Assembly (NCBI GenBank): GCA_018267965.1
Contig: JAFDXK010000002.1
Coordinates: 1-64,000 of the forward strand
Origin: Bacteroidota bacterium
Lineage (GTDB): Bacteria; Bacteroidota; Bacteroidia; Chitinophagales; Chitinophagaceae
Direction of reading: 5' to 3'
Length of the DNA: 64,000 nucleotides
Of this stretch, positions 20,420 through 33,313 are shown one piece after another; the first letter of the stretch is position 1, and each line of letters starts with the position of its first letter. Under the pieces are notes generated by a model. The model worked only from the letters and a program-made list of their open reading frames with translations. It was not told the origin of the DNA and searched no databases. A program made the position numbers and the translations under genes.

Positions 20420-21118
20420 ATGAACAAAGTAGTCGCCAATGCGGATGAAGCCATAAAAGGCATAGAATCGGGCATGACGCTGATGCTGGGTGGTTTTGGT
20501 TTGTGTGGTATACCGGAAAACTGTATTACAGCGCTTGTAAAAAAGGGTGTGAAAAATCTTACCTGCATATCCAACAATGCTGGTGTAGATGATTTTGGGA
20601 TAGGGTTGATGCTGCAGCAAAAGCAGGTGAAGAAAATGATTTCCTCTTATGTAGGCGAAAATGCAGAGTTTGAAAGACAATTGTTAAGCGGTGAGTTGGA
20701 GGTTGAGTTGATACCACAAGGCACATTGGCTACACGTTGCATGGCAAGCGGCTACGGTATGCCTGCTGTTTACCTGTTAGCAGGTGTTGGTACAGAAGTG
20801 GCTATTGGTAAAGAAGTAAGAAATTTCAACGGCAAAGAGTATTTGCTGGAACATGCCTTTGATTCTGACTTTGCGATAGTAAAAGCATGGAAAGGTGATA
20901 CACAAGGCAACCTTATTTATAAAGATACTGCCCGCAACTTCAACCCGATGATGGCGATGGCAGGTAAAATAACTATTGCTGAGGTGGAGGAACTTGTTGA
21001 ACCCGGCGAGCTTGACCCTAACTACATTCATACACCGGGTGTGTATGTGCACCGCATTTTCCAGGGAACGAATTATGAGAAACGTATTGAGCAACGCACA
21101 ACCCGTAAACGTAGTTAA
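20420..21118 (+). CDS. scoA: 3-oxoacid CoA-transferase subunit A
   Basis: The A subunit of succinyl-CoA:3-ketoacid CoA-transferase, which moves CoA between succinate and acetoacetate in ketone-body or acetoacetate use. The 232-residue sequence shows [16 protein letters not shown] near the start, [33 protein letters not shown] and [20 protein letters not shown]. The C-terminus ([14 protein letters not shown]) is that of intact family members. Normally scoB follows directly; here a ~440-bp cassette begins exactly at the scoA stop codon. Confidence 0.93.
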
Positions 21119-21152
21119 TGCGATAATAGGACAATGCGACAATACGATAATG
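21118..21152 (+). repeat. Left 8-bp tandem array of the four-helix-bundle cassette
   Basis: ATGCGATA-ATAGGACA-ATGCGACA-ATACGATA-ATG: four 8-bp units plus three bases. It begins on the last base of the scoA stop codon and ends one base before the cassette ORF start. It is the near inverse complement of the right array. Confidence 0.85.
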
Positions 21153-21153
21153 T

Positions 21154-21510
21154 ATGAGAAAAGAATATGAAAACAATCCGGTCGTTAAAAATGCTATCGA
21201 ATTATCATTGATGATAATAAAATATGCGCAACAATTGGAAAATGATAGGAAAAGTGTTGTAGCAAGACAAATATTAAAAAGTGGCACTTCGATTGAGGCG
21301 AATATCATAGAAGCGCAAAGTGCGGAAAGTAAGAGCGATTTTATACATAAAATGAAGATTGCAGATAAAGAAGCTCATGAAACATGGTATTGGCTGTACT
21401 TGTGTGAACAATCTGAAGGTTATCATTTTGAAGAATCTATTAAGACCAAACTAGATGAAGTGATGCGATTATTAAATGCAATAATTAAAACAAGTAAAAC
21501 GAATTCATAA
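21154..21510 (+). CDS. Four-helix-bundle protein (23S rRNA IVS-protein/Avd-like family)
   Basis: A 118-residue all-helical protein: NAIELSLMIIKYAQQLENDR, then VVARQILKSGTSIEANIIEA with the conserved SGTSIxANixEA signature, KMKIADKEAHETWYWLYLCE and LDEVMRLLNAIIKTSK. This family was first noted as the ORF in 23S rRNA intervening sequences, and a relative is the accessory protein (Avd) of diversity-generating retroelements. The biochemical function is unknown; such proteins form pentameric basic rings that bind nucleic acid. The ORF is set tightly between inverted repeat arrays and splits the scoA-scoB pair. Confidence 0.85.
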   Translation: MRKEYENNPVVKNAIELSLMIIKYAQQLENDRKSVVARQILKSGTSIEANIIEAQSAESKSDFIHKMKIADKEAHETWYWLYLCEQSEGYHFEESIKTKLDEVMRLLNAIIKTSKTNS

Positions 21511-21519
21511 CATTTAAAC

Positions 21520-21554
21520 TATTGCCGCATTGCCGTATTGTCGCATTGCCGCAT
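21520..21554 (-). repeat. Right 8-bp tandem array of the four-helix-bundle cassette
   Basis: On the plus strand: TATTGCCG-CATTGCCG-TATTGTCG-CATTGCCG-CAT. Read on the minus strand it gives ATGCGGCA-ATGCGACA-ATACGGCA-ATGCGGCA-ATA, the same unit type as the left array. It ends 11 bases before scoB. Confidence 0.85.
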
Positions 21555-21565
21555 CCCAAAAGATT

Positions 21566-22222
21566 ATGGCACTGAATAAAGAACAAATAGCACAACGTAT
21601 AGCGAAAGAACTGCAAGATGGTTTCTATGTGAACCTGGGTATAGGTATTCCCACACTGGTGGCTAATTATATTCCTGAAGGAGTAAGCGTGGTACTGCAA
21701 AGCGAGAACGGTTTGTTGGGCATGGGCCCCTTCCCTTTTGAGGGCGAAGAAGATGCAGACCTTATCAATGCCGGTAAGCAAACCATTACCACACTACCGG
21801 GTTCTGCATTTTTTGACAGTGCCATGAGCTTTGGTATGATACGTGCAGGTAAAGTAGACCTGACTGTACTTGGCGCCATGGAAGTAGCTGATAATGGCGA
21901 TATAGCCAACTGGAAGATACCCGGCAAAATGGTAAAAGGTATGGGTGGGGCTATGGACCTGGTGGCTGCTGCTAAAAACATTATAGTAGCTATGCAACAT
22001 ACCAACCCGAAAGGTGAAAGTAAGTTATTACCAAAATGTACGCTTCCTTTAACAGGCGTGCATTGTGTAAAGAAAATAGTAAGTGACCTGGGTGTGTTTA
22101 ATGTAACAGAAAATGGTTTTGAATGTATTGAATATGCTCCGGGCGTAACAATAGATGAAATAAAGTCTAAAACAGCAGGTAGGTTGACCATATCTCCTGA
22201 TGTTAAGGAAATGGTGTTTTAA
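21566..22222 (+). CDS. scoB: 3-oxoacid CoA-transferase subunit B
   Basis: The B subunit carries the catalytic glutamate that forms the enzyme-CoA thioester (VVLQSENGLLGMGP). Other family blocks are GFYVNLGIGIPTLVANYIP, ITTLPGSAFFDSAMSFGMIR, VDLTVLGAMEVADNGDIANW and CTLPLTGVHCVKKIV. The ATG at 21566 (MALNKEQIAQ, 218 residues) is preferred: a longer frame from 21530 would be translated from inside the repeat array. The stop overlaps the start of the ArsC-like gene. Confidence 0.93.
   Translation: MALNKEQIAQRIAKELQDGFYVNLGIGIPTLVANYIPEGVSVVLQSENGLLGMGPFPFEGEEDADLINAGKQTITTLPGSAFFDSAMSFGMIRAGKVDLTVLGAMEVADNGDIANWKIPGKMVKGMGGAMDLVAAAKNIIVAMQHTNPKGESKLLPKCTLPLTGVHCVKKIVSDLGVFNVTENGFECIEYAPGVTIDEIKSKTAGRLTISPDVKEMVF

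Positions 22223-33238: not shown

Positions 33239-33313
<75 letters not shown>

What the first reader, a model, noticed from the sequence alone, without database searches (positions are those of the whole stretch)
21118..21554. IVS-like cassette with inverted 8-bp arrays splits scoA and scoB
A four-helix-bundle ORF is enclosed by two arrays of an 8-bp unit (ATRCGRYA) in opposite orientation, placed exactly at the scoA stop codon and 11 bp before scoB. Bases 21132-21152 and 21528-21548 can pair over 21 positions with one mismatch and one G-U pair. 23S rRNA intervening sequences have the same plan, encode the same protein family and are cut out by RNase III. Here the unit sits in a metabolic mRNA. 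It may be a dispersed element that spreads with its repeat arrays and is silent because its RNA stem is excised or tolerated.
Basis: partly seen in the sequence, partly recalled or inferred. Interest (0 to 1): 0.87.

Follow-up and report, generated by a model that had tools for sequence, protein, structure and literature searches.

The report
Repeat-bounded gene cassette inside bacterial operons
A small gene of the family known from insertions in ribosomal RNA sits between two genes of a metabolic operon, framed by two mirror-image arrays of an 8-letter DNA word; related cassettes occur in gene gaps of many other bacteria, and the repeated word tends to follow the small protein's lineage rather than the host genome.

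Summary
Observation confirmed. An S23/IVP (four-helix-bundle) ORF at 21154-21510 lies between scoA and scoB, framed by inverted arrays of an 8-bp unit (0 of 2000 shuffles pair as well). It is not a one-off: 85 of 110 analysed S23 loci from the same order have inverted arms (null 2.0%), and 36 of 79 named loci from several phyla (null 1.6%). Units are mostly 7 or 8 bp, about 4.4 per arm. Across different operons, unit length and sequence follow the S23 protein's lineage, not the host genome. Where both neighbours run one way, the ORF runs with them in 89 of 92. At scoA-scoB, 3 of 15 genomes of the genus (own included) carry a cassette and 6 a bare gap; one shows an unrelated S23 beside remains of the older array. 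dN/dS 0.03-0.13 in 7 computable pairs of 13.
Best reading: a dispersed, replaceable operon cassette in which protein and arrays form one co-inherited unit; the protein most likely binds the arrays (inferred). RNase III excision was not testable; arm mismatches give no sign of a selected RNA stem. The mover is unknown.

The parts
20420..21118 (+). scoA, 3-oxoacid CoA-transferase subunit A; its stop codon overlaps the first bases of the left array
   Evidence: TIGR02429 E 1.3e-75
21117..21152 (+). left array, 4.5 copies of the octamer (AATGCGAC-type)
   Evidence: TRF; inverted pairing; scan
21154..21510 (+). S23/IVP four-helix-bundle ORF, 118 aa
   Evidence: PF05635 9.9e-22, TIGR02436 2.6e-24; a profile of 22 S23 proteins matches solved chains 2rld and 2gsc, 5 chains each
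21521..21554 (-). right array, 4.2 copies of the same octamer in inverted orientation
   Evidence: TRF; pairing
21566..22222 (+). scoB, 3-oxoacid CoA-transferase subunit B; ATG 11 bp after the right array (ORF listing starts it at a TTG at 21530, inside the array)
   Evidence: TIGR02428 3.3e-97; ATG start conserved in congeners

Best explanation
The feature is an S23 cassette read in sense: a four-helix-bundle ORF plus two inverted arrays of a short word that belongs to that protein lineage. Such cassettes are dispersed elements of gaps between co-directional genes. They arrive, can be kept for long periods, and are lost or replaced at the same operon junctions. Shown: the architecture, its recurrence, the sense bias, differences between congeners at one site, the tie between protein lineage and array word, better agreement of the two arms within a species than across species, purifying selection on the protein. 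Inferred: (1) the S23 protein binds the arrays as its cognate site, perhaps as the five-chain ring of solved relatives with about one word per subunit; (2) the cassette is read from the host operon, which would explain the sense bias; (3) the inverted arrays are the ends of the mobile unit. Not known: which enzyme moves it, and whether binding also regulates the operon. 23S rRNA intervening sequences would be the case in which such a unit sits in an rRNA gene.
For: Arms: 85 of 110 same-order loci score >=28 inverted, against 2.0% of mismatched pairs, 8 of 110 in direct orientation, 1 of 109 distal controls; 84 of 110 exceed all of 100 shuffles. Named loci: 36 of 79, null 1.6%, direct 10 of 79. 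Protein-word link on one locus per junction group (53): period 7/8 (50 labelled) needs 5 changes on the S23 tree against 11.8 in shuffles, 0 of 500 as low; unit similarity falls with protein distance, 0 of 999 permutations. Pairs in different genomes and junctions but near in protein (nearest 5%): unit score >=24 in 24.6% of 65, same period 97%; pairs in the same genome 1.9% of 52, same period 62%; other pairs 2.7% of 1193, same period 54%. Polarity: left-arm GC skew >0 in 48 of 53; AGTT in sense in the left arm in 26 of 89 loci, antisense in 3. Sense bias 89 of 92, one per junction 38 of 40. Site differences: scoA-scoB, paaB-paaC and accB-accC. dN/dS 0.03-0.13 in 7 of 13 pairs.
Against: No target-site duplication was evident by eye at scoA-scoB and no recombinase is encoded. 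Arrays can be plentiful without S23: congener G005 has 44 overlapping hits of the CAATGGCT word and no S23 match. 25 of 110 same-order and 43 of 79 named loci fall under the arm threshold, so arrays decay or are not essential. The Mantel correlation is weak (rho -0.155). Some cassettes at one junction look vertically inherited (paaB-paaC). In the scoA-scoB gap the C/G-word inserts of six congeners pass a hairpin test in only one. Within-locus arms do not beat left-left/right-right agreement across species significantly (10 of 13 groups, p 0.13). Binding of arrays by S23 is inferred only.
Confidence: 0.6

Rival explanations
1. mRNA IVS: the two arms form an RNA stem around the S23 ORF that RNase III cuts out of the operon transcript, so the insertion is silent.
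For: The arms pair in the predicted RNA. Sense bias 89 of 92. In Coxiella the 23S rRNA IVS with an S23 ORF is excised by RNase III at a 28-bp stem (PMC4990558, passages). Arms of one species agree better than arms across species in 10 of 13 groups.
Against: No G.U excess among arm mismatches (37 G.U vs 47 A.C on 53 loci; 59 vs 78 on all loci with paired arms), though RNA helices tolerate G.U. The S23 protein is under purifying selection here, whereas in Coxiella it is reported to decay (PMC4990558).
Confidence: 0.15
2. Ring regulator: S23 is an RNA-binding ring, like TRAP in plan, that wraps the 4-5 words of one arm in its operon's mRNA and so controls pairing of the arms and translation of the next gene.
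For: Units per arm median 4.4 on both sides, quartiles about 4 and 5 (74 loci); solved relatives 2rld and 2gsc have five chains each, and the Xanthomonas protein is described as a homopentamer (PMC4990558, passage). Left arm G-rich with AG(T) words. The right array ends close to the next start codon here (11 bp). Protein conserved at the same junction over large synonymous change.
Against: The junctions belong to varied pathways, and many congeners do without a cassette at the same junction. Only one arm would be needed. The unit count comes from a detector of my own with no null. The TRAP comparison is recalled, not tested.
Confidence: 0.25
3. Hitch-hiking: short tandem arrays are ordinary slippage or repeat-family products of intergenic DNA, and S23 ORFs simply sit among them.
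For: Arrays of the same words occur without an ORF in gaps of the same genomes, also where S23 is absent (G005). GxxExxY genes have inverted arrays too (13 of 28).
Against: Word and period follow the S23 protein and not the genome; inverted array pairs are rare otherwise (3 in 464 kb including this one); direct-orientation control 8 of 110.
Confidence: 0.1
4. REP/RAYT-type element: a Y1 (PF01797) transposase in trans moves the hairpins.
For: The own genome has one Y1_Tnp gene; short inverted elements in gaps resemble REPs (recalled).
Against: 9 of 46 S23-bearing genomes among 59 searched have no PF01797 match; some of these assemblies are incomplete.
Confidence: 0.04

Closest known systems
23S rRNA intervening sequences (IVS) with S23p ORF (Leptospira, Coxiella and others)
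   Same: Same protein family; ORF enclosed by complementary ends; similar size (444/428 nt in Coxiella, PMC4990558 passages; 438 bp here)
   Different: Here in a protein-coding operon; ends are tandem arrays of a word that follows the protein lineage; protein under purifying selection; excision not shown
Four helix bundle proteins (TIGR02436) annotated alone in bacterial genomes
   Same: Same family; a table in PMC5524665 (passage) lists one between guanylate kinase and a nicotinate mononucleotide adenylyltransferase in Flavobacterium columnare
   Different: None of the ten paper searches listed a paper that I recognised as describing inverted arrays or operon siting; most hits were seen as listings only
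TAACTGA heptamer arrays (PMC4679880: outline, abstract, passages, section 12)
   Same: Intergenic heptamer arrays of a few units, oriented, near gene ends, some in Bacteroidetes
   Different: Direct arrays of one word; 0 occurrences of 'four helix', 'intervening sequence' or 'S23' in its text
Avd of diversity-generating retroelements
   Same: PF05635 is said to resemble Avd (PMC10053308, passage)
   Different: No reverse transcriptase next to this ORF; neighbours are scoA and scoB
MITE with a minisatellite in Porphyromonas gingivalis (PMC4596501, start of abstract in a listing)
   Same: Bacteroidota element with inverted ends and tandem repeats
   Different: Not compared in sequence; no S23 ORF in the part seen

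Membership tests
S23/IVP protein family (PF05635, TIGR02436) | profile match over the curated cut-off | tested here: met
   77.6 bits vs 33.8; 85.6 vs 24
23S rRNA intervening sequence | carries an S23/IVP ORF between complementary ends | tested here: met
23S rRNA intervening sequence | lies within a 23S rRNA gene | tested here: not met
   lies between scoA and scoB; the only Rfam match in the window is a tRNA at 33239-33312
23S rRNA intervening sequence | RNA excised by RNase III | not testable with these tools
   needs RNA data; the wobble test gives no support
Transposable element with terminal inverted repeats | occupied and empty sites in close relatives | tested here: met
   scoA-scoB 3 of 15 occupied, 6 of 15 bare gaps of 2-15 bp
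Transposable element with terminal inverted repeats | target-site duplication | tested here: inconclusive
   none evident by eye at scoA-scoB; the arrays make the edges unclear
Transposable element with terminal inverted repeats | encodes or depends on a known recombinase | tested here: inconclusive
   the cassette holds the S23 ORF only; Y1_Tnp absent from 9 of 46 S23-bearing genomes; other recombinases not searched
Diversity-generating retroelement accessory protein Avd | reverse transcriptase next to the gene | tested here: not met
   neighbours are CoA-transferase subunits; the rest of the genome was not searched for one
Known anti-phage defence protein | PADLOC profile match | tested here: not met
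   0 families at E 0.01

The most novel reading that the evidence does not exclude
A bacterial class of 'worded' cassettes: each S23 lineage reads its own 7-8-letter word, carries 4-5 copies of it at each end to match a five-subunit ring, and spreads and persists inside operons of many phyla; ORF-less hairpins and the GxxExxY (PF13366) genes in similar arrays are parts of the same economy, and rRNA intervening sequences are one side branch. The ring on the array may both define the mobile unit and tune the operon.
Probability: 0.3. Interest if true: 0.93.

Novelty: new variant of a known kind. Interest (0 to 1): 0.8.

Why it matters
S23 proteins have been known for decades from 23S rRNA insertions with no assigned function (PMC4990558, passages). 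The link between protein lineage and array word gives a directly testable substrate: which word each protein should bind. The siting in gaps between co-directional genes suggests that rRNA genes are only one habitat of the family. If true, it would explain 'four helix bundle protein' genes that split operons such as scoA-scoB, argC-argD, paaB-paaC and sdhA-sdhB.

Tried and rejected
Rejected or weakened: (a) vertical, fixed gene of this operon: 3 of 15 genomes of the genus carry a cassette there, with S23 proteins of two far-apart clades. (b) Chance repeats. (c) Word set by the genome. (d) Split of 7-bp and 8-bp words between the two main S23 clades: wrong, both hold both; the clustering is finer. 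(e) Left array as a stop-codon block in three frames: modest, 21 of 53 left arms (right arms 12) against 20% in shuffles; 13 of 36 in both left and right arms of named loci. (f) Selected RNA stem: G.U 37 vs A.C 47. (g) Y1 transposase as general mover: 9 of 46 S23-bearing genomes lack it (my note says 8; the recount gives 9). (h) Defence protein: no PADLOC match. (i) Agreement of arms: the first comparison used arms trimmed to their own best match, which favours the result (12 of 13 groups); untrimmed 10 of 13, two ties, one opposite (scoA-scoB itself); the 13 groups were chosen by me from the tree. (j) ORF-less inserts called hairpins by eye: scored, 1 of 12 S23-less genomes at scoA-scoB (G005), 2 of 11 at paaB-paaC, and 6 of 12 at accB-accC score >=26 with 0 of 60 shuffles as high; G003 and G011 at accB-accC score 19 and 21, also with 0 of 60; the rest fail. 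(k) Neighbours were called as the longest ORF, which is crude: for L003 it took a wrong-strand ORF where accB is expected. (l) Rfam on 20 of the 113 loci, mostly those with odd neighbours: no rRNA, two tRNAs; the other 93 were not tested, except that the window itself holds no rRNA match.

Not obtained: a structure model of S23, so no fold comparison. A reverse-transcriptase search was not run. No call names the organism of the window; I take it for a Bacteroidota of the Chitinophagales, recalled from gene content, not tested.

Full report
WHAT IS THERE. The window holds scoA (20420-21118) and scoB (from ATG 21566) with an insertion between them: a 118-aa ORF at 21154-21510 that matches PF05635 (E 9.9e-22) and TIGR02436 (2.6e-24), framed by two arrays of an octamer at 21117-21152 and 21521-21554 in opposite orientation. 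The left array overlaps the scoA stop codon; the right one ends 11 bp before scoB. None of 2000 shuffles of the flanks pairs as well. By a strict scan, array pairs of this kind are rare: one in the window, two in 400 kb of contig C5, none in one shuffled version of each.

OTHER COPIES IN THE GENOME. The genome (G000, 3.74 Mb) has three S23 ORFs. All three lie between inverted short-unit arrays, each with its own word: AATGCGAC-type here, CAATGGCT-type next to accC, a longer AT-rich word between genes that I read as argS and rpsO (accC is TIGR00514, the other names are recalled). The octamer of the window also occurs without an ORF, for example in a 117-bp element fitted between two co-directional genes at C5:278097-278213. 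Of 14 ORF-less array sites examined (three words), 3 had an inverted partner scoring >=24.

THE PLAN IS GENERAL. In 59 genomes (own plus relatives) 46 have S23, 179 matches in all by summing the table. I analysed 113 of these 179 (3 own, 30 returned with the search, 80 fetched); the choice favours high scores and the genus. Three were dropped before the arm test for Ns or short flanks, leaving 110. Arm score >=28: 85 of 110; same-locus direct orientation 8 of 110; mismatched left-right pairs 2.0%; distal windows of the same loci 1 of 109. 84 of 110 beat all of 100 shuffles. Periods are mostly 7 and 8. Units per arm: median 4.4 on both sides, quartiles about 4 and 5 (74 loci). Of 80 named loci from genome contigs, the best 80 of 554, one was dropped as short; 36 of 79 pass, null 1.6%, direct 10. 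By phylum: Bacteroidota 21 of 38, unplaced 2 of 5, Acidobacteriota 2 of 5, Chloroflexota 1 of 4, Bacillota 2 of 4, Fibrobacterota 1 of 3, Pseudomonadota 2 of 3, Myxococcota, Poribacteria, Planctomycetota and Thermodesulfobacteriota 1 of 2 each, Campylobacterota 1 of 1; Verrucomicrobiota 0 of 2, and 0 of 1 in Nitrospirota, Nitrospinota, Lentisphaerota, Actinomycetota, Omnitrophota and Balneolota.

THE WORD FOLLOWS THE PROTEIN. To avoid counting one inherited site twice I kept one locus per junction group (53 with paired arms out of 67 groups). On the S23 tree, 7 against 8 bp (37 and 13 rows) needs 5 changes where shuffles need 11.8 (0 of 500 as low). Unit similarity in the same orientation falls with protein distance (Mantel rho -0.155, 0 of 999); in the opposite orientation it does not (rho -0.02). 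Pairs from the same genome share words no more than strangers do (score >=24 in 1.9% of 52 against 2.7% of 1193); pairs from different genomes and junctions with near proteins do (24.6% of 65; same period in 97%). So the array goes with the protein, not with the host.

POLARITY AND SENSE. Measured on the arms plus 24 bp on either side, the left arm is G-rich in 48 of 53 and the right arm C-rich in 42 of 53 in the sense of the ORF; AGTT stands in the left arm in sense in 26 of 89 loci and antisense in 3. Where the two neighbours run the same way, S23 runs with them in 89 of 92 (one per junction: 38 of 40); 17 more of the 109 loci with both neighbours called lie between genes of different direction. 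Among named loci 53 are sense and 6 antisense.

OPERON JUNCTIONS. Junctions recur across genera. For ten junctions the neighbours were compared with NCBIfam (several are cut by the locus end and lie under the curated cut-off): argC-argD, FadB-like - acetyl-CoA acyltransferase, rfbB-rfbA, paaB-paaC, (accB, not tested)-accC, atpD-(84 aa, no match), nuoA-nuoB, sdhC-sdhA, sdhA-sdhB, methionine-lyase family - thiolase. Several split subunits of one complex, as scoA-scoB does here. Rfam finds no rRNA in 20 of the 113 loci, mostly those with odd neighbours.

TURNOVER AT ONE SITE. scoA-scoB in 15 genomes of the genus: S23 cassette in G000, G014 and G009; a bare gap of 2-15 bp in G012, G006, G002, G004, G001 and G013; a short insert of C/G-rich words without ORF in G008, G007, G005, G003, G010 and G011 (in G011 scoA was not found upstream). 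That insert pairs significantly only in G005. G000 and G014 carry sister S23 proteins (100/99) and the same octamer. G009 is sister to G014 by scoB (99/96; G000 is not placed with them) but carries an S23 of a far clade with another word; its left flank still begins with TAATGCGGTAATAGG of the old array and then switches. I read that as replacement of one cassette by another at the same place. At paaB-paaC, G008, G002 and G007 have S23, 2 of 11 tested S23-less congeners (G010, G011) a significant ORF-less hairpin, and G004 was not located; at accB-accC, G000 alone of 13 has S23 by the sequences shown and 6 of 12 others an ORF-less hairpin (score >=26, 0 of 60 shuffles), some with words akin to those of S23 cassettes elsewhere. 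In PaaC, congeners without S23 keep right-arm words as coding sequence of the N-terminus (MTNQPINKSTNQLIYALQ in G014 against MSIQKLLYTLQ in G013), which may be a relic of a lost cassette.

THE TWO ARMS. At 13 junction groups chosen from the tree, left and right arms of one species match each other better than arms across species in 10, with two ties and one opposite (untrimmed flanks, Wilcoxon p 0.003); they do not significantly beat left-left and right-right agreement (p 0.13). For rfbB-rfbA the word differs between congeners while both arms agree. Mismatches between arms show no G.U excess (37 G.U, 47 A.C). Copying between arms at the DNA level, or re-insertion, fits this better than selection on an RNA helix; strand-specific mutation bias could confound the test.

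SELECTION ON THE PROTEIN. dN/dS is 0.03-0.13 in the 7 of 13 pairs in which it could be computed, with dS above 1 and so rough; in 6 the synonymous rate was saturated. Upstream neighbours give 0.01-0.12 where computable, often with lower dN than S23. The protein therefore works for something while it sits at one site.

ARRAYS WITHOUT S23. A 20-mer of this window's octamer (overlapping hits, so one array gives several) has 18 hits in G000, 43 in G009 and 42 in G014, and 0-10 in the other 12 genomes; reversed-pattern control 0-2 per genome. The CAATGGCT word has 31 in G000, 44 in G005, 23 in G007, 8 in G004, 0-2 elsewhere, control 0-1. G005 has no S23 match. So arrays persist and may spread without a resident S23; this counts against S23 as the sole mover.

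A SECOND CARGO. GxxExxY genes (PF13366, PDDEXK_3) have inverted arrays too: 13 of 28 loci, null 4.1%, direct 6 of 28, words such as CACAGAGA and CGCTAAGG (2 of 30 loci dropped because the gene was not found by motif).

MECHANISM. I commit to: co-inherited protein-array unit, protein binds array, read from the host operon, moved by an unknown host or trans enzyme, replaceable at operon junctions. The count of 4-5 words and the five-chain solved relatives (2rld, 2gsc) suggest one word per subunit; this is inference. Whether the ring also regulates the operon stays open. Excision by RNase III, shown for the 23S rRNA element of Coxiella (PMC4990558, passages), could not be tested.

LITERATURE SEEN. 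PMC4990558 passages; PMC4679880 outline, abstract, passages and section 12; PMC5524665 passages; PMC10053308 passages; PMC10910872 one figure legend naming 23S rRNA IVP; PMC4596501 start of abstract in a listing. In the ten searches no listed paper was recognised as describing inverted word arrays around S23 genes in operons. Listings are capped and the library lacks most subscription journals, so this is not proof of absence.

The check changed the claim about ORF-less hairpins at scoA-scoB (now 1 of 6 inserts passes), narrowed the accB-accC and paaB-paaC claims, and added the rRNA search.

Noticed in passing
L163-L192 (PF13366 loci): GxxExxY genes also sit between inverted short-word arrays (13 of 28 loci), with words unlike those of the S23 cassettes seen.
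   Followed up: partly
L323-L337 (paaB-paaC): Array words are translated as the N-terminus of PaaC in several congeners, including some without an S23 cassette there.
   Followed up: partly
L074, L082 (scoA of G005, G003): The C/G-word insert begins inside the last scoA codons, so it encodes the ScoA C-terminus.
   Followed up: no
L414 (G009:C18:209000-227500) and L413 (G005:C26:5000-24500): Many arrays of the same word in successive gene gaps within about 15 kb.
   Followed up: partly
L145: Both arms hold an extra small palindrome (CCCCGACTTCGTCGGGG-type) between words.
   Followed up: no
G042:C4, G023:C2, G052:C14: S23 and GxxExxY genes lie within 3 kb of each other in three genomes.
   Followed up: no
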